From Legionella steelei (GTDB taxonomy: Bacteria; Pseudomonadota; Gammaproteobacteria; Legionellales; Legionellaceae), in contig NZ_LNYY01000021.1 of the NCBI RefSeq assembly GCF_001468005.1, positions 372,637 through 436,636 on the forward strand: a stretch of 64,000 bases of DNA, given 5' to 3'. The translations under genes and the position numbers were made by a program. Shown piece after piece: positions 3,964 to 25,737 of this stretch (the stretch's first letter is position 1; every line of letters starts with the position of its first letter). The notes beneath the pieces are model-generated. The model ran no database searches, was not told where the DNA came from, and saw only the letters and a program-made list of their open reading frames with translations.

Positions 3964-5085
3964 ATGACTAAGAATCATGAAATTCTATTTACTCCATTTA
4001 AATTAAGAGAACTTACTTTAAAGAACCGTATCGTTATGGCACCACTAACACGAAATCGTTCAATACACGGAATTGATACTCCTTCAGAACTTAATGCAGA
4101 ATATTATGCCCAACGTGCGGAAGCAGGCTTAATCATCGCTGAGGCAACACAAATCTCTCCTACTGGAAAAGGATATGCTTGGACGCCTGGAATCTATTCT
4201 CCGGAACAAATTGTTGGATGGAAATTGGTAACAGATGCAGTTCATGCCCGTGGAGGGGCGATTTATTTGCAGCTCTGGCACGTAGGAAGAATTTCCCATC
4301 CTTCTCTTCAACCTGGAGGTATTGCTCCGGTTGCTCCTTCTGCTCTTACAGCAACCGGGCAACGTACATTTATTGAAAATGGTACATTTGTCGAAGTTGG
4401 AGCGCCACGTGCGTTAGAACTTAGTGAAATTCCCGGCATTATCGAAGATTATCGAGTCGCGGCAAGGAATGCGGTTTTAGCTGGATTCGATGGGGTTGAA
4501 ATTCATGCAGCGAATGGGTATCTCATTCATCAATTTTTGTGTGATGGCAGCAACCATCGAACCGATCAATATGGTGGTTCGATTACTAATCGATTGCGTT
4601 TTGCGTTAGAGGTGACCACAGCAGTTGTTTCTGAAGTTGGGGCCCATCGAACAGGAATCCGAATTGCTCCAGTAAGCCATGCTAATGGTGTGACTGATAC
4701 CTCACCTGCTGCTGTATTTTTCCCACTTGTCCAAGAATTGAGCCGATTTAATTTGGCTTATGTGCATGTTATTGAAGGAGAAACTCAAGGGGCGCGAGCG
4801 TTTTATGGCTTTGATTTCCATGCATTACGTAAAGCGTTTGATGGTCCCTGGATGGTGAATAATGGTTATACTTTAGAAATGGCAACTGAGGCAGTTGCAA
4901 GTGGTTATGCAGACCTAGTTGCTTTTGGACGATATTTCATTGCCAATCCTGATTTGGTGACGCGATTTAAAAAGAATGTGCCATTGAATGAACCAGAGCG
5001 CGCGACTTTATACGGTGGTGGTGTAAAAGGGTACACCGATTATCCTTTTTATAGTAATCCAATAAATGAAGATGACATAAAATGA
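3964..5085 (+). CDS. Old yellow enzyme family NADH:flavin oxidoreductase (NemA-like)
   Basis: A full-length FMN-dependent ene-reductase of 373 residues, the usual size. The N-terminus has the family pattern LFTPFKL-LKNRIVMAPLTR. The active-site stretch GFDGVEIHAANGYLIHQF gives the substrate-binding pair H181 and N184, followed by the NHRTDQYGGS signature. Members reduce activated alkenes, N-ethylmaleimide, nitrate esters and similar electrophiles with NAD(P)H in the cytoplasm. The stop codon overlaps the start of the following alpha/beta hydrolase gene, so the two are probably cotranscribed, perhaps for detoxification. The physiological substrate cannot be deduced. Confidence 0.9.
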   Translation: MTKNHEILFTPFKLRELTLKNRIVMAPLTRNRSIHGIDTPSELNAEYYAQRAEAGLIIAEATQISPTGKGYAWTPGIYSPEQIVGWKLVTDAVHARGGAIYLQLWHVGRISHPSLQPGGIAPVAPSALTATGQRTFIENGTFVEVGAPRALELSEIPGIIEDYRVAARNAVLAGFDGVEIHAANGYLIHQFLCDGSNHRTDQYGGSITNRLRFALEVTTAVVSEVGAHRTGIRIAPVSHANGVTDTSPAAVFFPLVQELSRFNLAYVHVIEGETQGARAFYGFDFHALRKAFDGPWMVNNGYTLEMATEAVASGYADLVAFGRYFIANPDLVTRFKKNVPLNEPERATLYGGGVKGYTDYPFYSNPINEDDIK

Positions 5086-5885
5086 TGCTCAAAATAGCGC
5101 TTTGGATTTTCTTTATTTTTATTTTAATTTTTATATTGTCTTATCCATTGCAGCGCTATTTGATTTATTTTCCGTCTCCCGAACAACCTAATCGCAACGA
5201 TTTTCATGCAGAAGACATGCACGTTGTTAAAATCCCAGTTGCTGATGGACTGTCTTTAAATTCTTGGTATAAACCCGCTGTGGATAACAAGCCTACGATT
5301 CTCTATTTACATGGTAATGCAGGACATATTGGCTATCGGATGGATCTGATTCGACAGTTTCTATCAGAGGGATTGGGTGTGTTATTGCTTGAATATCGAG
5401 GATATGGAGGAAACCTGGGAAAACCTACAGAGTCAGGATTTTATCAAGATGCTCGTGCGGCAATGAAGTTTTTACAGCAGCAGGGTGTTCAAGAACATCG
5501 TATTGTGCTCTATGGGGAATCATTGGGGACTGGAGTGGCAACACAAATGGCAACAGAGTTTCCTGTGTGTGCTGTGGTATTACAATCCCCTTACACGTCG
5601 TTAACGGATTTGGCTCGATTTCATTATCCTTGGTTACCCGTACCGCTAATGGATAAGTATGATTCTTTATCACGTATTCAAAAAATTCATGTTCCTATCT
5701 TAATGTTGCATGGGAAATTAGATGAAGTTGTTCCTTATGAGCAGGGCGTTACTCTGTTCAATCATGCCAACCAACCTAAGAAATGGATTGATTTTCCTGA
5801 GAAAGGCCATCAAGACTTATGGAGTCCCCATTTTGCTCATAGTGTGATGCATTTTATTAATTCTTATTGTACGCATGCAAAATAA
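5082..5885 (+). CDS. Membrane-anchored alpha/beta hydrolase, BEM46/YfhR-like
   Basis: Starts within the stop of the preceding gene (ATGATG overlapping TGA), indicating translational coupling. The first 20 residues form a hydrophobic segment that is probably a membrane anchor. The fold signatures are clear: LYLHGNAGH for the oxyanion region, the nucleophile elbow G-E-S-L-G with S147, an acid in GKLDEVVP (D214), and a C-terminal histidine in KGHQDLW (H243). This is the usual pattern of the BEM46/ABHD12-13 group of serine hydrolases, acting on esters or lipids of unknown identity. Pairing with an ene-reductase suggests processing of small reactive compounds, but that is inference. Confidence 0.85.
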   Translation: MMLKIALWIFFIFILIFILSYPLQRYLIYFPSPEQPNRNDFHAEDMHVVKIPVADGLSLNSWYKPAVDNKPTILYLHGNAGHIGYRMDLIRQFLSEGLGVLLLEYRGYGGNLGKPTESGFYQDARAAMKFLQQQGVQEHRIVLYGESLGTGVATQMATEFPVCAVVLQSPYTSLTDLARFHYPWLPVPLMDKYDSLSRIQKIHVPILMLHGKLDEVVPYEQGVTLFNHANQPKKWIDFPEKGHQDLWSPHFAHSVMHFINSYCTHAK

Positions 5886-6099
5886 GGGGTTTTAACCATA
5901 GTACCGTTTGCGTAAATGAAAAAATGAATAAAATATTTACAAAAATTCGTCCATCGATTACCATGTGTACAGGCTTCATGGGACGCCTATACCCACAAAA
6001 GAGGATCTCACCCTGGTTAGTAATTGATTGATTCATTATTCATTAACCTTTTTGTTGCTGGAAAAAGTGGGTGTCTAGCAGAGAGCAAAGGGGATTTAC

Positions 6100-6603
6100 A
6101 TGAATAAGCCACACAATTCATTTCGTGTTGACGAATATAAAATTCAAGCGTCTATTTTATTAAAATCGTTACATGCTACAAATCATGCAGTAGCACAAAA
6201 AGCTGCTCGACGTTTTCAAAATTTGCCTGAGTTTAAAAATTTTTCTCTTGAAGAAATAATACGTGCTGATATGAAGCGCAAACATGCGCTTACTGTGATT
6301 GCGATAGGAATCGGTTTTAATTCTTGGCGTGATTTGAAATGTCAGTTGCCATTTATTCGCGGTGGATTTCTGAATCATTGGTTTTCACATTATGCGGAAG
6401 CTAAATTACATCAGCGCACACAGGGTGGTTTTTTATTGCCATTTAAAAATCAATTTTTTGTTTGTGACGCAGATTATATTCGTAATCTCGGTTTTAATCC
6501 TGAGGATCGGGATTGGACATTCATAGGAAATGACTGGGTGCATCCAGAGAGTAAAGAGGCATGGCAACGACTGTATAAAAAATGGATGGTAATTCAGCAA
6601 TAA
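6100..6603 (+). CDS. Hypothetical protein with an IAxxxGFNSWxxLK segment
   Basis: An intact 167-residue frame with a start preceded by AAAGGGGATTT. No family was recognised with confidence. Residues 43-87 read as helices ending with K-H-A-L-T-V-I-A-I-G-I-G-F-N-S-W-R-D-L-K. This resembles the short N-terminal segment (hxxA..IA+.GF.SW..LK) found at the front of some bacterial ankyrin-repeat and glyoxalase-superfamily proteins, but no ankyrin repeats or VOC fold follow here. The C-terminal half is rich in aromatic residues. No signal peptide or membrane segment is visible. Probably a cytoplasmic Legionella accessory protein. Confidence 0.6.
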   Translation: MNKPHNSFRVDEYKIQASILLKSLHATNHAVAQKAARRFQNLPEFKNFSLEEIIRADMKRKHALTVIAIGIGFNSWRDLKCQLPFIRGGFLNHWFSHYAEAKLHQRTQGGFLLPFKNQFFVCDADYIRNLGFNPEDRDWTFIGNDWVHPESKEAWQRLYKKWMVIQQ

Positions 6604-6618
6604 GGATATTAATTTTTA

Positions 6619-6684
6619 TTTTTACGTGAACGTATGCGTGCTCTAGTGAGGGCCAGTGTAGCCTGTTGCTTGCAACCAGGCTAC
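6619..6684. repeat. Dispersed repeats: TTTACGTGAACGTATGCG motif and GTAGCCTG hairpin
   Basis: Two short repeats lie side by side after the preceding gene. The first (6619-6641) matches the TTTACGTAAACG motif also seen near 15646, 18016 and 50370. The second (6658-6684) is an imperfect hairpin with arms GTAGCCTG and CAGGCTAC, a form also found near 10012 and 59066. The hairpin may help to end transcription, but no T run follows. Confidence 0.6.
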
Positions 6685-6784
6685 GTTTAGTTTTTCGGGC
6701 ATATCTTTACGTAATAAATAGCTCTCTTGCAGTAGGAAAAAAAATTAACATAGAATGGATTATGTTTTTTTTTGGAGGTTATGG

Positions 6785-7747
6785 ATGGCCTATTTGAAGC
6801 ACATTATCGTTACTTTTATTACATGCTTATTGACTCAAGGCTTGGCTTTTGCACATACAGAAACTAAGGCATGTGATGGCAGCATTTATAACCCTTGCAT
6901 TGTAGAAGACAGTGCGTTTTCTTACTCTTCCTTAAAATGGTTGCGTGATGCATCCATGATTGCTACGGCTTATCAGGGCAATACACTGGGTATTAGAGAT
7001 TTACCCGTTTCGGGTAGTGAGGAGCCGAGTGAGAAAGGGTGGAAAGAGATTTCTGAGTATATTGCCAAGCATAGGCACTCGAAAATAGTAGTACTGGATT
7101 TGCGCCAGGAAAGTCATGGCTATATTAATGGACGAGCGATTACTTTAGTGAGTGACTACGATTGGATAAATCGAGGAAAAAGTAATGCACAAAGTCTTAC
7201 AGATCAGAATCATTGGCTTAAGTCATTAAGCATTCAGAAAAAGATAAGCGGTGTTTTATCACATCAGCAGTTTGCTGCTAAGGAATACTCTAGTGGAAAA
7301 ACCATTCCCGTGAAAGTGGTAAAAAATGAAGAGGAGTTAGTTTCTCAATTAGGTTTTGCATATCAGCGACTATACGTTACTGATCATGCGGCTCCATCTG
7401 ATGCAGAAGTTGATGCATTTTTGTCAATAATAAAAAATGCGTCTAAAGATACTTGGTTCCATATACATTGCCGGGGAGGAAAGGGGCGGACTACGACTTT
7501 TTTGGTGATGTATGACATGTTAAAAAACGCAGATAAAGTCAGTTTTGACGAAATTATTGCACGACAGGCTTCAATACCACCTTATTATAATTTGTTTGAA
7601 GTGCACCGAGCAGATCCTTTTCTTACATCTTATTATGAACAGCGAGTTATTTTCCTTTCTCGTTTTTATCGATTTGCACAACAGTTTTTAAAGGGATATC
7701 AAGGAGCCTGGAGTCAGTGGAGTGCTGCAGATTTTGATAAGGTTTAG
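6785..7747 (+). CDS. Exported cysteine phosphatase, PTP-like phytase type
   Basis: The active-site P-loop is H-C-R-G-G-K-G-R-T-T-T-F, with the nucleophile at C229. This HCxxGxGRT form, with TTF following, is characteristic of bacterial PTP-like phytases (cysteine myo-inositol polyphosphatases) and related dual-specificity phosphatases. A general acid is likely in the loop around VTDHAAPSDAEV. The N-terminus is a signal peptide ending near GLAFA-HTET, so the enzyme is probably periplasmic or secreted. The start at 6785 is preferred because GGAGG lies 6 bases upstream; an in-frame ATG at 6755 would add ten residues and spoil the signal peptide. The true substrate (inositol phosphates, phosphoinositides or phosphoproteins) is not determined by sequence. 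Confidence 0.8.
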   Translation: MAYLKHIIVTFITCLLTQGLAFAHTETKACDGSIYNPCIVEDSAFSYSSLKWLRDASMIATAYQGNTLGIRDLPVSGSEEPSEKGWKEISEYIAKHRHSKIVVLDLRQESHGYINGRAITLVSDYDWINRGKSNAQSLTDQNHWLKSLSIQKKISGVLSHQQFAAKEYSSGKTIPVKVVKNEEELVSQLGFAYQRLYVTDHAAPSDAEVDAFLSIIKNASKDTWFHIHCRGGKGRTTTFLVMYDMLKNADKVSFDEIIARQASIPPYYNLFEVHRADPFLTSYYEQRVIFLSRFYRFAQQFLKGYQGAWSQWSAADFDKV

Positions 7748-16698: not shown

Positions 16699-16767
16699 AT
16701 GAATCTTATCAATACCTGTGTTTTGCTGTACAATAAGTAAAAATGTTGTTTGTTTTGTGGTGCTTTA

Positions 16768-17991
16768 ATGTCGTTTTTTGAAACAGTAGAACAGATTCGC
16801 TCACAGTCAGCTCAGACAAATGAACACCAACAGTCTGCAAGACTTTTCCAACTTCTGGAGACAGCCTATTTAACGGAAGTTAATAGACTTATAAAACAAT
16901 TAAATGTGGCTCAGAGTGAGCAGCTTCAGCACATTTTACGTATGCTTCGCGAAGCAGATAGACTGTATCTTAATGCGCGAGGTATGGAAATTACTGGCCA
17001 TATTTTATTTAGTCGCCATGGACAGTGCAGTATTTGGGATCAAAAGAAGCTGGGTGTAAGTCCTAATACAGCGATTTCAGAAGAAGCGGAGCGAAATATG
17101 GCAAAAACGAATCGCTCCAGTGGTGCTTTGTTATGCTATGCTCCTCAAGAATATCCTCCGTTGATTGCTGTTTCGCCAATGAATCGAGCGATGCAAACTG
17201 CTGGTTTGGCGACTCCTTTGGAAATTAAGAATGCAGACATCAGGGTTTTGTCTTTTTTAGCAGAAAACAGTATTGCACCATCTGGCTATGATGTTCGTTC
17301 CGTAGCTGATATGCAGGAGTTATATAACCAGCTTTCTTTTTGGACTTCTCCGATTAGAAAACTTCTGTTAAAACTTGCCATCTGGACTTACAGTGATCGA
17401 GATTTTGATTTGCTTTATGAAAAAAGAAAGAGTGCTGCGGAAAAAATACAGGAACACGGCAATAAAATCCTTTCTAATAGTGATAAACCGGATGTTTGTC
17501 AGGACCTAAAGTATCATGGTGATAAAATTAAGGATATTCGAGCACTGATTGATACTGTAGATCAGCGAGATTGTTGGTTGTTTGGACATGGAAAGAATTT
17601 TTGGGCTTTTTTCCAAGATGTTTTTGGCATGGAATCCGCGTTTGACTACGCAGAAACACGCAGAGTTTATAAGACCAATACCCAAGGGAACTCTTCATTG
17701 TATACCCCTCCTTATGTTTTAGTCATTAATCAAAAAACTGGAGTAATAGAAGGGAAATATACTGGTGAGCCTAGGATACCGCGCCAAGAAAAATCATCAC
17801 ACGTTGAACATGTATCTCCGTCTGGAGAAGAAAGTTCCCCTGATGTATCAAGAGCGATGACTCAGCTTGGAAACCCTGTTGTACAACAACAAGAAGGATC
17901 TAGCAAAAAAAGTACCTTAAAACCGTCAGTACATTTTGTAAAACAACCACATATAGAAACAGAACATTATGTGCATAGCGTAACGCCTTGA
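16768..17991 (+). CDS. Histidine-phosphatase-like effector candidate
   Basis: About 407 residues. A helical N-terminus (residues 1-75) precedes a histidine phosphatase core: F-S-R-H-G-Q with H84, S-P-M-N-R-A-M-Q-T-A with R140, and F-G-H-G-K-N with the second histidine H274. These match the RHG, SPxxRAxQT and GHG landmarks of the phosphoglycerate-mutase superfamily. A polar, Ser/Glu/Pro-rich tail of about 75 residues follows (SGEESSPD is E-block-like), a feature of Dot/Icm translocation signals. The start at 16768 (MSFFETV) is preferred over 16750 because the upstream six codons are unconserved in character. Substrate unknown. Confidence 0.65.
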   Translation: MSFFETVEQIRSQSAQTNEHQQSARLFQLLETAYLTEVNRLIKQLNVAQSEQLQHILRMLREADRLYLNARGMEITGHILFSRHGQCSIWDQKKLGVSPNTAISEEAERNMAKTNRSSGALLCYAPQEYPPLIAVSPMNRAMQTAGLATPLEIKNADIRVLSFLAENSIAPSGYDVRSVADMQELYNQLSFWTSPIRKLLLKLAIWTYSDRDFDLLYEKRKSAAEKIQEHGNKILSNSDKPDVCQDLKYHGDKIKDIRALIDTVDQRDCWLFGHGKNFWAFFQDVFGMESAFDYAETRRVYKTNTQGNSSLYTPPYVLVINQKTGVIEGKYTGEPRIPRQEKSSHVEHVSPSGEESSPDVSRAMTQLGNPVVQQQEGSSKKSTLKPSVHFVKQPHIETEHYVHSVTP

Positions 17992-19691: not shown

Positions 19692-20582
19692 ATGCCACTA
19701 ATTGTTAATTTGTCATCCATTCATGAGTTACATCCAACAAGTACATGTGTCCAGGCATTTAAAGACATTTGTGATCAATATTCTAAAAAAGGTTCTTACT
19801 GTTGTTCCAGTTTTTTTCAATCGTGGACAAACTCAGCCTGGCTTATGTATCAATTAGCTATGAATGACTCTAAATTAATTCAGCCATATCGCTTAGGTAA
19901 ACTCACTACAGAACAATTTCTCGAGCGTTTATTGCAAATTTTCTCTTTTCTTAAGAATGTAACTCCTAAAAAGGGTGAAATGGAGCGGTTGCAGAGTAAG
20001 CAGTTGTATTCCACAACTTTTCCAATGATGCTCCTAGAAGAGGCGTGGAATTCACAAGTTGGTTGGGATGCGGCAAAAGCGGGTTATCTTCCCGCATTAA
20101 TTCGTGAAGCAGAACGACGTGATGAAAAAGAAGAGAAAGCTTCAGAGTCTCAGCCTAAACCTAAAATGGATCCTATTTATTTCATAGCTAATACCAATGA
20201 ATTGCATGTGCTACAGATTCTCAATATGTTGCGAAAAGAATATCCAGACCTCAATTTTTATCGGGATGTGGATGTACGCATTAAAGAAGATAAAACCCCT
20301 ATTGAAATTGCACCCGGTATATTTCTTTGCCTGTCTTATCGCTACCAGCTGTTTAAAACCCAGGATCAAACGCAAACGATGAATCCTAGTTCAACCATGT
20401 CGTTACTGAATTATTTGGTTACTAAGCAACTTAAAGACGTTCCCGTTTCTGAGTTGCGTGTGATTAGCCAACACCAAGCTGATTTAGTTGAAGCGTTGCG
20501 AGTGGGTATTGATGCAGATCATATGTATCAGGCAAGTGATTATTTTGCAGCACAAACTACAAGTTTGAAAAAAACGCAGTAA
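19692..20582 (+). CDS. Hypothetical protein, Legionella-type orphan
   Basis: A 296-residue frame with no recognised domain. It has a cysteine-containing N-terminal third (CCSS near residue 37), a charged helix around residues 135-160 (EREDEKEEKASESQPKPK-like) and a C-terminal part with a mixed alpha/beta pattern (MDPIYFIANTNELHVLQILN). No signal peptide or membrane segment. Its stop is four bases before the deformylase-like gene, so the two are very probably cotranscribed. It could be an effector or a cytoplasmic accessory protein; nothing in the sequence decides. Confidence 0.55.
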   Translation: MPLIVNLSSIHELHPTSTCVQAFKDICDQYSKKGSYCCSSFFQSWTNSAWLMYQLAMNDSKLIQPYRLGKLTTEQFLERLLQIFSFLKNVTPKKGEMERLQSKQLYSTTFPMMLLEEAWNSQVGWDAAKAGYLPALIREAERRDEKEEKASESQPKPKMDPIYFIANTNELHVLQILNMLRKEYPDLNFYRDVDVRIKEDKTPIEIAPGIFLCLSYRYQLFKTQDQTQTMNPSSTMSLLNYLVTKQLKDVPVSELRVISQHQADLVEALRVGIDADHMYQASDYFAAQTTSLKKTQ

Positions 20583-20586
20583 CTAT

Positions 20587-21249
20587 ATGAGCTGGCGTTT
20601 TCGTATGGTGTTATTCCTTTTCCTAATAGGGAGTTCAACGAGTATGGCAATGGATATCGTTACTATAGAGCAGCCGGAATACCGTCAGGTTCTGAAAAAT
20701 AAAGCTCAAGAAATTCAGTTTCCTTTAAGTCAAGCAGATAAAGATTTAATTACTGCTATGAAAAGTAAATTACATGGATTGGGTGGGGTTGGTTTGGCTG
20801 CACCTCAGGTTAATTTTTCACGAAGAATTATTGCAATTTATATTCCTGAAGAGGCGACCTTACTGCGGGATAATGTGAAAAAATTCTATCCCATGCATAT
20901 TATGATTAATCCAAGTTACGAACCAGTGGCCGGTTCTGGGGTGAGTTCTGATTTTGAAGGGTGTTATTCTGTGTCCAGCAAGTCTGGCAAAGTTCCTCGT
21001 TATGAGCAAATCACAGTGAGTTACTATGATGAGCTAGGTCAGTTGCATCAACAAATTGAAGAGGGATTTTATGCTCGGGTTTTACAGCATGAAATCGATC
21101 ACTTAAATGGTTTTCTAATTCTTGATAGGCTAACTGCTGATTGTGTCCAAGGTTCTGTGGAAGAAATGATGGCTTTGCGACGAGCATCGTTACCTCCAGG
21201 AAAAAGAATTATTTTTGATCAGGTTATGGCGAGAAAAGCAAAGAAGTAG
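20587..21249 (+). CDS. Peptide deformylase homologue with a signal-like N-terminus
   Basis: All three deformylase motifs are present: G-V-G-L-A-A-P-Q (motif 1, GxGxAAxQ), E-G-C-Y-S (motif 2, EGCxS, with the metal cysteine) and Q-H-E-I-D-H-L-N-G (motif 3, HExxH). So an active Fe/Zn enzyme that removes N-formyl groups is expected. Unusually, residues 1-22 (MSWRFRMVLFLFLIGSSTSMA) form a hydrophobic stretch like a signal peptide or anchor, whereas housekeeping deformylases are cytosolic and start close to motif 1. Length (220) is above the usual 165-190. It follows the orphan gene by four bases and is not next to fmt. Probably a second, specialised deformylase acting at or beyond the membrane. 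Confidence 0.88.
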   Translation: MSWRFRMVLFLFLIGSSTSMAMDIVTIEQPEYRQVLKNKAQEIQFPLSQADKDLITAMKSKLHGLGGVGLAAPQVNFSRRIIAIYIPEEATLLRDNVKKFYPMHIMINPSYEPVAGSGVSSDFEGCYSVSSKSGKVPRYEQITVSYYDELGQLHQQIEEGFYARVLQHEIDHLNGFLILDRLTADCVQGSVEEMMALRRASLPPGKRIIFDQVMARKAKK

Positions 21250-23423: not shown

Positions 23424-23771
23424 ATATATCGTTATAATTTATTATACTAATTATTTTGATTATAGACATTGTTTCACCTAAGAGTGGTGAATCTTGTAAC
23501 AAATAATAATTCTTAGGTAATTCAATGAGATATTCTTTAATATGAGACAAAAGTTGGTGAAATGCTCATATTGCTCCTTATCTGAGTCGCAATCGATACA
23601 AATTTTCACATAAGCACGACATAGTGTGAGTTTTTAAGTAGAAGTGATTTAAAGGAAAACCATTATTTTTCAAAGGTAACTTGACAAAATTAAATATTGC
23701 TTTCTAAAATGCAATTGGCTAAATTATATTTTGCCTATTGCTTATAACTAACTCTAAAAGGAATTAAGTAA
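23424..23771. other. Divergent promoter region between patatin gene and RiPP operon
   Basis: A 348-bp AT-rich gap with no convincing gene. It must hold the promoter of the minus-strand phospholipase gene on the left and the operon promoter described separately on the right. No Fur, Cue or other metal-regulator operator could be named with confidence. Confidence 0.5.
23681..23710 (+). promoter_or_regulatory. Sigma-70-like promoter of the bufferin operon
   Basis: A perfect -35 TTGACA (23681-23686), an 18-base spacer and TAAAAT (23705-23710) as -10, about 60 bases before the precursor start. AAGGA lies about 10 bases before that ATG. Confidence 0.6.
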
Positions 23772-24023
23772 ATGAATAAATTACAATTAACAGGCGTTGC
23801 TCTTGCAATTGGTGCTGCTTCAATGTTTGCTATTGCTCCTGCTTTCGCTGCTGATGCTGCTTCTGGTATGGTTAAATGCCAAGGTGGTAATGCATGTAAA
23901 GGCCAAGGCGCTTGCAAAGGTGCTGATAACGCTTGTAAAGGTCAAAATGCTTGCAAAGGCAAAGGCATGAGCGAAATGTCTAAAGAAGATTGCCAAAAAG
24001 CTGGTGGTACTGTTGCTCAATAA
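23772..24023 (+). CDS. bufA2: Bufferin-type RiPP precursor (BufA2-like), exported cysteine-rich peptide
   Basis: An 83-residue precursor. Residues 1-26 are a clear signal peptide ending AFA-A. The mature part has six cysteines (36, 42, 48, 55, 61, 74). Four of them are in regularly spaced A-C-K-G units (41-44, 47-50, 54-57, 60-63), followed by a conserved-looking tail, SKEDCQKAGGT. This is the BufA2 layout of bufferins: periplasmic copper-binding RiPPs whose cysteines are converted by an MNIO oxidase, here encoded next door. The signal peptide doubles as leader in this class. A strong promoter precedes it and a hairpin follows it, consistent with precursor made in excess over enzymes. Copper as ligand is family knowledge, not shown here. 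Confidence 0.85.
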   Translation: MNKLQLTGVALAIGAASMFAIAPAFAADAASGMVKCQGGNACKGQGACKGADNACKGQNACKGKGMSEMSKEDCQKAGGTVAQ

Positions 24024-24046
24024 TTCTGATTGAGTATTGCGTTACT

Positions 24047-24069
24047 CCAGGCATGCATCGCATGCCTGG
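24047..24069 (+). terminator. Intercistronic hairpin (attenuator) after the RiPP precursor gene
   Basis: A perfect 10-base stem, CCAGGCATGC with GCATGCCTGG, and a 3-base loop between the precursor and oxidase genes. Only a short broken T run follows (ATTTTCCCC), so partial termination or mRNA end protection is more likely than a full stop. Confidence 0.6.
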
Positions 24070-24094
24070 TCCACATTTTCCCCGGATTTAATAC

Positions 24095-24958
24095 ATGGAT
24101 AGCCCAAAATATAAAGTAACCCCAAAAATGCCTTTTCTAGGTTTTGGATTGGGATTACGACCTGATTATTATGAAGAAATCTTGGCGCAAAAACCTAATT
24201 TGGATTGGTTTGAGATCCTCACCGAAAATTATATGGTTCCTGGTGGAAAACCACTGTACTATCTTGATCAAATAAGAGCCCACTATCCCATAGTGATGCA
24301 CGGTGTTTCTCTCTCGTTAGGTAGTACTGACCCTTTGGATAGAGAATATTTAAAGCAACTGAAAGAGTTGGCAGCACGGGTCGAACCAGCATGGATTTCT
24401 GATCATTTATGCTGGACAGGGGTTAACGGAATTAATGCCCATGATTTATTGCCTATTCCCTATACACGTGAAGCGGTAAATCATGTTGTTTCACGAATTC
24501 AGCAGGTTCAGGATTTTTTAGGACGCCCCATTTTAATCGAAAATGTATCTAGTTATCTGACTTACAAACAATCTGAAATGTCTGAATGGGAATTTATATT
24601 AGAAATTGTAAGACAAGCAGATTGTTATATTTTACTAGATGTAAATAATATTTATGTGAGCTCCGTAAATCATCAGTTTAATCCTATGGATTATATTTTT
24701 TCTATGCCCGCCGAGCGCATAGCTCAGATCCATTTAGCTGGTCACTCGGATCATGGTAATTACATTATTGATACACATGATGCTCCTGTCATTCAACCCG
24801 TTTGGGATCTTTACGCTGCAACATTGCAACGCCTGGGCCCTATATCAACGATGGTTGAACGAGATGATAATATGCCTCCCTTTGCTGAGCTACTTGCAGA
24901 AATAAATCATGCAAGACGAATTGCAGAATCAATTTTGATTGAAGAGGTGCTTGTATGA
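24095..24958 (+). CDS. bufB: MNIO (DUF692) multinuclear iron oxidase of the bufferin system
   Basis: A 287-residue TIM-barrel protein of the DUF692/MbnB family. Visible landmarks are G-L-G-L-R at strand 1, the N-terminal metal site H-G-V-S-L-S-L-G, S-D-H-L-C-W, I-E-N-V-S-S-Y, L-D-V-N-N-I-Y, H-L-A-G-H and D-T-H-D. Together these supply the His/Asp/Glu/Asn ligands of a di- or tri-iron centre. MNIOs modify cysteines in RiPP precursors (oxazolone/thioamide in methanobactin, thiooxazole in bufferins). It lies 71 bases after the precursor gene and overlaps the partner gene by four bases. It acts in the cytoplasm before export of the peptide. Very confident of family; the exact modification is inferred from context. 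Confidence 0.92.
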   Translation: MDSPKYKVTPKMPFLGFGLGLRPDYYEEILAQKPNLDWFEILTENYMVPGGKPLYYLDQIRAHYPIVMHGVSLSLGSTDPLDREYLKQLKELAARVEPAWISDHLCWTGVNGINAHDLLPIPYTREAVNHVVSRIQQVQDFLGRPILIENVSSYLTYKQSEMSEWEFILEIVRQADCYILLDVNNIYVSSVNHQFNPMDYIFSMPAERIAQIHLAGHSDHGNYIIDTHDAPVIQPVWDLYAATLQRLGPISTMVERDDNMPPFAELLAEINHARRIAESILIEEVLV

Positions 24959-25737
24959 CCGAGCTTGCACAGTTACAAAATCAATTTCAAAAGTTTTTAT
25001 TATCAGAGCACAGCGAGATTCATGATTCTATTGTGCAAACTGAATTGGTTTCAGTGGATACTCGCTTAGGTATTTATGGTGATGCCTATAAACTCAGATT
25101 GATTGAAAGTTTGAGCACAAGTTTTTCTGCCTTATATGCTTATTTAGGCACGGAGGAATTTAATAAGTTGTCGACTTATTATATTGAGGCACATCCTTCG
25201 TGTTATCGCTCCATACGTTGGTATGGGGATTTATTGCCTGAGTTTATAAAGCACAATTACCCACAGTATCCCTATTTGGCTGAGCTTGCTGATTTTGAAT
25301 GGAAAATGTGTTTGGCTTTTGATGCTGCTGATACACCGGTAGTACGAGTTGAAGACATGGCTGTTGTTCCTCCTGAAGCCTGGGCTAATTTACAATTTGT
25401 TCTTCATCCCTCTCTACAGCGAATTAATTATTTTTGGAATGCAGTTTCTCTTTGGCAAGCCCTAACTTATGATCACGAGTTACCTGAATTACAGCAAAAT
25501 GAGGCATTCACTCCTTGGGTTTTATGGCGTGCGCCAGAATATATGCTCCAATTTTATAGCTTGTCTCAACAAGAAGCTTGGCTTTTGGATGGTGTATCAC
25601 AAGGACTATCTTTTGGTGCTCTTTGTGAGGGGCTCTGTCAGTGGGTAACACCTGAGGAAGTGGGGATGACTGCTGCTTCTTATCTCAAGGGGTGGATTCA
25701 AAATGGTATGCTATCGCAATTATTGATTGCGGATTAA
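24955..25737 (+). CDS. bufC: DUF2063 partner protein of the MNIO oxidase (BufC-like)
   Basis: The start overlaps the stop of the oxidase gene (ATGA), so the two are translationally coupled. The 260-residue protein has the N-terminal DUF2063 (PF09836) pattern: L-x-x-Q-x-x-F-x-x-F-L, R-L-G-I-Y-G-D-A-Y-K-L-R-L-I-E-S-L, F-S-A-L-Y-A-Y-L-G and a D-L-L-P-E-F region. A tryptophan-rich C-terminal domain follows. In MNIO systems this partner delivers the precursor leader to the oxidase (MbnC/BufC/HvfC role). No DoxX-type fourth gene follows; the operon appears to end here, next to a MITE-like repeat. Confidence 0.9.
   Translation: MTELAQLQNQFQKFLLSEHSEIHDSIVQTELVSVDTRLGIYGDAYKLRLIESLSTSFSALYAYLGTEEFNKLSTYYIEAHPSCYRSIRWYGDLLPEFIKHNYPQYPYLAELADFEWKMCLAFDAADTPVVRVEDMAVVPPEAWANLQFVLHPSLQRINYFWNAVSLWQALTYDHELPELQQNEAFTPWVLWRAPEYMLQFYSLSQQEAWLLDGVSQGLSFGALCEGLCQWVTPEEVGMTAASYLKGWIQNGMLSQLLIAD

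What the first reader, a model, noticed from the sequence alone, without database searches (positions are those of the whole stretch)
23681..25737. Bufferin-type (BufA2-B-C) copper RiPP operon in a Legionella-like genome
The sequence shows a signal-peptide precursor with four regularly spaced ACKG units and six cysteines, a DUF692/MNIO oxidase with its metal-ligand motifs, and a translationally coupled DUF2063 partner, under one strong promoter. Family knowledge: MNIOs convert cysteines of such precursors to copper-binding heterocycles that protect against copper. Inference: an intracellular pathogen or amoeba parasite could use this to resist copper poisoning in the phagosome. The absence of a DoxX-type fourth gene and a separate precursor/enzyme hairpin are details worth noting.
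Basis: partly seen in the sequence, partly recalled or inferred. Interest (0 to 1): 0.8.

Follow-up and report, generated by a model that had tools for sequence, protein, structure and literature searches.

The report
Copper-binding peptide operon in Legionella
These three genes most likely make a small secreted peptide that soaks up excess copper, a kind already known in Legionella, and comparison with relatives suggests that they are one half of a larger gene set that has been split in two in this genome.

Summary
Window 23772-24023, 24095-24958 and 24955-25737 encode a BufA2 bufferin precursor, a BufB MNIO maturase and a DUF2063 (PME-type 1) partner; BufA2 and BufB pass their curated NCBIfam cut-offs. 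This is an ordinary member of a published family: Legionella Buf2 is already in print, and a DoxX-less three-gene operon in L. pneumophila was described in 2017. No DoxX was found in the whole genome.

(1) The genome's only DUF2282 bufferin gene, an orphan bufA1 followed by yceI-cytb561-yceI, lies on another contig. Of 15 Legionellaceae copies of bufA1 lying 0.9-1.0 kb behind bufB, 14 are in the order bufB-bufC-bufA1-yceI-cytb561-yceI, 11 with bufA2 in front. So the single BufBC pair probably matures both precursors. (2) A bufA2-bufB hairpin is conserved across Legionella through compensatory changes; a weaker stem-loop follows the promoter.

Modification, copper binding and any role in phagosomes are untested. 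One complete relative keeps bufA1 without any maturase, which counts against obligate sharing.

The parts
23681..23710 (+). sigma-70-type promoter, TTGACA-18-TAAAAT
   Evidence: 11 of 12 consensus matches. A site was found in 41 of 43 Legionella/Legionellales rows scanned, with an 18-nt spacer in 40 of the 41 (the script picked the best-scoring site per row). Alignment.
23717..23735 (+). candidate stem-loop at the 5' end of the transcript (GGCTAAAT-TAT-ATTTTGCC, one T-T mismatch)
   Evidence: Group evidence: mean z -2.39 in 16 representatives against -0.17 and +0.12 for control stretches. For the window alone it is weak: the strict mismatch-free helix test gives p 0.82.
23772..24023 (+). bufA2: bufferin precursor, 83 aa, signal-peptide-like N terminus (cleavage after AFA at residue 26 read by eye), six Cys
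   Evidence: NF050166 Cu_RiPP_BufA2 79.5 bits, cut-off 60
24047..24069 (+). intercistronic hairpin bufA2/bufB, 10-bp stem, 3-nt loop
   Evidence: Fold. 95.6% of 407 cells paired and double changes in 7 of 10 pairs over 41 rows. A single copy in the genome.
24095..24958 (+). bufB: MNIO (DUF692) maturase, 287 aa
   Evidence: NF050167 398.8 bits (cut-off 310); PF05114 392.7. Nearest solved structures 3bww (1.8e-53) and 8hci chain D, DUF692 family (9.5e-27).
24955..25737 (+). bufC: DUF2063 + RRE-like partner protein (PME-type 1), 260 aa
   Evidence: PF09836 59.4 bits. AlphaFold2 model with pLDDT 92.1 matches 3dee at 6.4e-8 and 8hi7_A (TglHI) at 3.0e-6.

Best explanation
This is a three-gene bufferin operon. 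BufA2 is made in the cytosol. BufB, an iron oxidase that needs its partner BufC to bind the precursor, oxidises central cysteines to thiooxazole-type heterocycles. The precursor is then exported by Sec and processed, and the mature peptide of about 57 residues sequesters excess Cu(I) in the periplasm. One promoter drives the unit. The structured hairpin behind bufA2 (and probably the 5' stem-loop) lets the peptide, needed in bulk, be made in excess over the enzymes, needed in catalytic amounts. In this genome the same BufBC pair most likely also matures a second precursor in trans, BufA1 at G000:C19. BufA1 sits with YceI and cytochrome b561 genes of the lipid-peroxyl-radical detoxification type, so copper chelation and membrane antioxidant defence were probably one unit before the operon was split. 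Shown here: gene identities, family membership, gene order in relatives, hairpin conservation. Inferred: the chemistry, copper binding, the expression role of the hairpins, the direction of the split, and the trans action.
For: BufA2 and BufB models pass their cut-offs. BufC has the DUF2063 domain and the fold of the MNIO partners NGO1945 and TglI. The residues matching HvfB N175, D242 and H244, which are essential in HvfB by PMC13419390 (passages), are present as LDVNN and DTH in the alignment to 3bww (matched by hand). [quoted passage not shown] PMC12668002 states that all characterized MNIO-PME1 clusters install thiooxazoles (passages). Sharing of the maturase: the genome has one MNIO, one DUF2063 protein and one DUF2282 protein. 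The order bufB-bufC-bufA1-yceI-cytb561-yceI on one strand is seen in 14 of the 15 Legionellaceae loci where bufA1 lies 0.9-1.0 kb behind bufB, and bufA1 with yceI lies beside bufBC in 5 further gammaproteobacterial loci. In 3 of the 14 no bufA2 is found upstream although bufBC-bufA1 remain. DUF2282 occurs in 68 of 140 Legionellaceae genomes, 67 of which have a BufB-model hit; of the 33 whose only DUF2282 copies are orphans (no BufB hit within 6 kb on the contig), 32 have one. Hairpin.
Against: No modification, copper binding or expression was measured. G002, listed as 100% complete, has bufA1-yceI-cytb561 with all four Cys but no MNIO and no DUF2063 match, so BufA1 may persist unmodified. G024, G029 and G038 have BufB without any DUF2282 match. 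The fifteenth locus with bufA1 behind bufBC (G008) is a different, paralogous cluster without yceI or cytb561. In L143 about 0.8 kb separates bufA1 from the first yceI, and in L149 the cytb561 hit is in two pieces. Co-occurrence counts are not corrected for relatedness. The hairpin's effect on expression is inferred; it could be a leaky terminator. The 5' stem-loop is weak in the window's own sequence.
Confidence: 0.75

Rival explanations
1. BufBC here acts on BufA2 only. The distant BufA1 works unmodified, or is a relic kept by its yceI-cytb561 neighbours.
For: G002 keeps bufA1-yceI-cytb561 with its Cys but has no MNIO and no DUF2063 match. Three genomes of the genus have BufB and no DUF2282 match.
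Against: bufA1 follows bufBC directly in 14 of 15 loci with the yceI-cytb561 genes behind it. Three of the 14 lack a detectable bufA2 yet keep bufBC. G002 carries IS3-type transposase ORFs near bufA1 (named by eye), so its loss of BufBC could be recent.
Confidence: 0.3
2. The hairpin behind bufA2 is a leaky intrinsic terminator (attenuator) and not a stabilising or processing element. Either would raise the precursor:enzyme ratio.
For: In many genus rows a T-rich stretch follows, 5 or more T in the first 10 bases.
Against: The window hairpin is followed by TCCACATTTT and the terminator scan did not call it. The eight linked operons measured have a hairpin in the same gap, mostly without a T-run.
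Confidence: 0.45
3. The peptide serves copper acquisition or another metal (gold, silver, mercury) rather than buffering excess copper.
For: The related L. [quoted passage not shown]
Against: Bufferins enhance growth under copper stress (PMC12452194, passages). No known metal transporter is evident among the two neighbours scanned, a patatin-like and a DedA protein.
Confidence: 0.15
4. It is an Hvf/oxazolin (EGKCG) operon rather than a bufferin operon.
For: BufB and HvfB are close relatives; the HvfB model scores 292.4 bits.
Against: That is below the HvfB cut-off of 360. BufC scores 37.8 against the HvfC cut-off of 142. The precursor has no EGKCG repeat and passes the BufA2 model.
Confidence: 0.02

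Closest known systems
Buf2 (BufA2, Buf_6/12Cys) bufferin gene clusters, incl. Caulobacter and L. pneumophila Buf2 (PMC12452194; passages and section 18 seen)
   Same: Precursor-MNIO-DUF2063 order, six Cys, no sigma or anti-sigma genes beside it
   Different: DoxX absent; a second bufferin with yceI-cytb561-yceI elsewhere in the genome; conserved hairpins (the words YceI, cytochrome and hairpin do not occur in the paper's main text)
L. pneumophila H3 operon lpg2253-2255 (PMC5413113; passages and section 14 seen)
   Same: Three genes without DoxX, same order. Probably the orthologue: in G034 the BufA2 operon lies about 207 kb from the GIG-type MNIO, against 203 kb in the paper's table (that G034 is L. 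pneumophila is inferred)
   Different: There the small gene was treated as a homologue of the DUF2282 gene lpg2108
L. pneumophila GIG operon lpg2105-2108 (Buf1 type; PMC5413113, passages)
   Same: MNIO + DUF2063 + secreted Cys precursor, copper/gold response
   Different: DUF2282 precursor, DoxX gene, carried on an integrative element
Burkholderia lcoA-bcnA (cytochrome b561 - YceI-type lipocalin) (PMC9113575; passages seen)
   Same: The YceI and cytochrome b561 families and their adjacency match the genes behind bufA1
   Different: No DUF2282 in that paper's main text. Our YceI_1 scores 135 against the PRK03757 cut-off of 232

Membership tests
BufA2 bufferin precursor | NCBIfam NF050166 over its curated cut-off | tested here: met
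   79.5 against 60 bits
BufA2 bufferin precursor | six conserved Cys | tested here: met
   Six Cys in the window ORF. Core pattern in 41 of 42 precursor rows; six Cys in 40 and seven in 2
BufA2 bufferin precursor | Sec signal peptide | tested here: inconclusive
   Clear by eye (MNKLQLTG...APAFA/A); no predictor was run
BufA2 bufferin precursor | Cys converted to thiooxazole-type groups; Cu(I) binding | not testable with these tools
   Needs mass spectrometry and metal binding
BufB (MNIO) | NCBIfam NF050167 and Pfam PF05114 over cut-off | tested here: met
   398.8 against 310; 392.7 against 25
BufB (MNIO) | residues matching HvfB N175, D242, H244 | tested here: met
   LDVNN and IDTH in the alignment to 3bww. 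Residue roles from PMC13419390 (passages); numbering carried over by hand
PME-type 1 partner (BufC/HvfC) | DUF2063 domain, about 250-260 residues, NGO1945-like fold with RRE | tested here: met
   PF09836 59.4 bits, 260 aa; best fold match 3dee, then TglHI entries
HvfC | NCBIfam NF050145 over cut-off | tested here: not met
   37.8 against 142
HvfB | NCBIfam NF003818 over cut-off | tested here: not met
   292.4 against 360
Bufferin clusters with DoxX | DoxX gene (frequent core gene, not universal) | tested here: not met
   PF07681: 0 matches in the whole genome
BufA1 (Buf1), the orphan gene at G000:C19 | DUF2282 over cut-off, four Cys | tested here: met
   80.5 against 22.4 bits; four Cys in the mature part of the sequence
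LcoA/BcnA-type module behind bufA1 | cytochrome b561 gene adjacent to a YceI lipocalin gene | tested here: met
   PF01292 118.7, PF04264 140.6 and 118.0 bits; adjacent in L116. Function not tested

The most novel reading that the evidence does not exclude
The window operon is half of an ancestral seven-gene envelope-stress unit, bufA2-bufB-bufC-bufA1-yceI-cytb561-yceI, that was split in the main Legionella clade. One maturase pair serves two different bufferins (BufA2 in cis, BufA1 in trans) and is tied to a lipid-peroxyl-radical quenching module. Conserved hairpins after the promoter and behind bufA2 set the peptide:enzyme ratio.
Probability: 0.5. Interest if true: 0.55.

Novelty: new variant of a known kind. 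Interest (0 to 1): 0.38.

Why it matters
A published survey (PMC12452194) notes bufferin precursors that have no maturase beside them and leaves open whether they are modified from elsewhere. The linked and split forms of this unit in one bacterial family make that question directly testable, and they connect copper-binding peptides to the cytochrome b561/YceI antioxidant system. The operon itself is ordinary for Legionella.

Tried and rejected
Hvf/oxazolin identity: rejected. Plasmid origin: only two weak distant matches, 10% and 18% of the query, among 72,556 plasmid records. The hairpin as a dispersed repeat: rejected, one copy of the pattern in the genome. A known RNA family: none; the only Rfam row was a SNORD100 match, 20.5 bits against a gathering score of 58. 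BufC by sequence against solved structures: nothing meaningful, so a model was folded instead. A mismatch-free helix test of the 5' stem-loop: only 18 of 41 rows reach p<0.05 and the window row does not. MAFFT alignment A1 of that region was too loose for a pair count and was not used further. Dating of the split: the BufB tree of 51 rows is midpoint-rooted with open forks, so it only shows that the linked state is clustered (3 changes against a shuffled mean of 15.5) and that the window's 16-row clade has no linked member. The first two literature searches on 'bufferin' were swamped by 'buffering'.

Rows dropped: of 55 bufB stretches 44 were kept as distinct. L017 (no BufA2-like precursor found) and L030 (core missing) were left out of the precursor and hairpin sets; L092 was left out of the hairpin alignment because an insertion sits in the loop, but is one of the 15 whole-gap representatives; L017 was not scanned for a promoter, and L030 and L063 gave none. 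The hairpin segments in alignment A2 were cut around the best stem of each gap (one, L018, was widened by hand), which raises the percentage paired; the whole-gap z-scores do not have that bias. Shuffle controls do not correct for relatedness.

Twenty bufA1 copies not directly beside a bufB were fetched (one of them, L126, lies 5.7 kb from a bufB). 17 have yceI behind bufA1 and 16 have cytb561, some hits cut by the end of the stretch; L156, L157 and L158 have neither.

Full report
What is there. The window holds three co-directional genes at 23772-25737: an 83-aa precursor, a 287-aa MNIO and a 260-aa DUF2063 protein whose start overlaps the MNIO stop by four bases. The precursor matches NCBIfam BufA2 with 79.5 bits (cut-off 60), and the MNIO matches BufB with 398.8 bits (cut-off 310) and Pfam PF05114 with 392.7 bits. 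The third protein matches DUF2063 with 59.4 bits. Its AlphaFold2 model (pLDDT 92.1) resembles NGO1945 (3dee, E 6.4e-8) and the TglHI entry 8hi7_A (3.0e-6). The flanking genes, a patatin-like protein with a cyclic-nucleotide domain upstream and a DedA protein downstream, are on the opposite strand. The nearest maturases are from Legionella sp. 515359 (93%) and L. parisiensis (88%). Both flanks are shared with L002-L005; the DedA side also with L009, L018 and L019; neither with L006-L008 or L010-L014.

How common it is. In 45 genomes of the genus, own genome included, an MNIO is found in 40, BufA2 over its cut-off in 39, DUF2063 over its cut-off in 40 and DUF2282 in 38. The own genome has one MNIO, one DUF2063 protein, one BufA2 over the cut-off, one DUF2282 protein and no DoxX. 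Outside Legionella, 52 of 60 loci examined have a CK-rich precursor before bufB. PMC5413113 (2017; passages and section 14 seen) described an L. pneumophila operon, H3, of three genes without DoxX. PMC12452194 (2025; passages and section 18 seen) modelled a Buf2 bufferin of L. pneumophila subsp. fraseri and counted two Buf2 genes in that genome. So neither the operon nor the lack of DoxX is new.

The second bufferin. The weak second BufA2 hit in the own genome (27.5 bits) is a DUF2282 (BufA1) protein, 80.5 bits. It is followed by genes for YceI, cytochrome b561 and YceI. In a family-level search of 140 Legionellaceae genomes, 68 have DUF2282 and 80 have a hit to the BufB model (75 over its cut-off); 67 have both, and only G002 has DUF2282 alone. 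The Fisher p of 2.5e-25 ignores relatedness. Fifteen DUF2282 copies lie 0.9-1.0 kb behind a bufB on the same strand. All fifteen were fetched. Fourteen read bufB-bufC-bufA1-yceI-cytb561-yceI, with a bufA2 hit in front in eleven; in L143 about 0.8 kb lies between bufA1 and yceI, and in L149 the cytb561 hit is in two pieces. The fifteenth, G008, is another kind: a CK-repeat precursor, bufB, bufC and a BufA1 of 40% identity, with a cyclase-like gene (named by eye) and no yceI or cytb561. In eight of the loci measured, bufB and bufC overlap by four bases in all eight and the gaps downstream of bufC lie between -23 and 71 bases (start codons chosen by script). Among the 80 loci, bufA1 with yceI lies beside bufBC in seven, five of them gammaproteobacterial metagenome-assembled genomes; in L021 and L065 they lie in front of bufB. 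Of twenty fetched bufA1 copies not directly beside a bufB, 17 keep yceI and 16 cytb561. The BufB tree shows the linked state clustered and the window's 16-row clade without it.

What this suggests. Conserved adjacency, loss of BufA2 while BufBC-BufA1 remain, and near-absence of BufA1 without BufB all point to BufA1 as a second client of BufBC; in the window genome the modification would have to happen in trans. PMC12452194 raises trans modification and multi-substrate MNIOs in general terms. The cytb561-YceI pair corresponds to LcoA-BcnA, reported in Burkholderia to limit membrane lipid peroxidation (PMC9113575, passages). Since copper drives such radicals (general knowledge), chelation and quenching in one unit make sense. 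No paper in the library holds both YceI and DUF2282 or both MNIO and YceI; a whole-word search for YceI, cytochrome b561 and bufferin (two of three) gave six papers, none with the word bufferin, though the plural was not covered. Against: G002 keeps the bufA1 module without any maturase, and G024, G029 and G038 have BufB without DUF2282.

The RNA elements. Between bufA2 and bufB lies a 10-bp hairpin. In 41 aligned rows, 95.6% of 407 cells pair and 7 of 10 pairs show changes on both sides; none of 500 shuffles reaches these values. Whole intergenic stretches fold better than at least 95% of shuffles in 14 of 15 representatives. In the eight linked operons measured, the same gap folds at -17 to -28 kcal/mol with largely different letters (no shuffles there). 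The pattern occurs once in the own genome and no Rfam family reached its gathering score. Just after the -10 box a second stem-loop shows as a group (mean z -2.39 in 16 representatives, 10 at the 5% level; controls -0.17 and +0.12, 1 and 0 at the 5% level), but the strict test fails for the window row. I read these as devices for a high peptide:enzyme ratio; that is inference.

Verdict. The finding is real and correctly named, and the operon is a known kind in a genus where it is already published. The added value is the split two-bufferin unit and the conserved hairpins, which need experiments.

Noticed in passing
L116 3175-5174 (G000:C19, about 541.7-543.7 kb): Orphan bufA1 followed by yceI-cytb561-yceI in the own genome, behind genes that look like biotin-synthesis genes (by eye).
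   Followed up: yes
L140 / L030 (L. rubrilucens), upstream of bufB: Only the start and end of a bufA2-like frame remain and the Cys core is absent, while bufBC and a hairpin are present and bufA1 follows.
   Followed up: yes
L117 (G002): bufA1-yceI-cytb561 kept with its Cys but no MNIO or DUF2063 match in the genome; two copies, one shortened, of an IS3-type transposase ORF pair lie close by (family named by eye).
   Followed up: partly
L160 (G008) 5051-7535: A paralogous cluster with a long CK-repeat precursor, bufB, bufC and bufA1, next to a cyclase-like gene; again one BufBC pair between two precursor types.
   Followed up: partly
L092, gap between bufA2 and bufB: An inverted-repeat (MITE-like) insertion of about 140 nt sits in the loop of the conserved hairpin, leaving both arms in place.
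   Followed up: no
L061 and L070 (Rickettsiella, Aquirickettsiella), upstream of bufB: BufB-type maturases preceded by an odd lipoprotein-like precursor with 10 and 8 Cys and a His/Arg-rich part, without CKG motifs.
   Followed up: no
L010, L012, L014: A cytochrome b561 gene directly behind bufC without a bufA1 or yceI hit in the stretch, possibly an intermediate state.
   Followed up: partly
window 20587-21249: A peptide deformylase (PF01327, 139 bits) with an apparent N-terminal signal peptide by eye, unusual for a cytosolic enzyme.
   Followed up: partly
window 16750-17991 and 19692-20582: Two long ORFs without a Pfam match at E 0.001 (16768-17988 and 19692-20579 were scanned).
   Followed up: no
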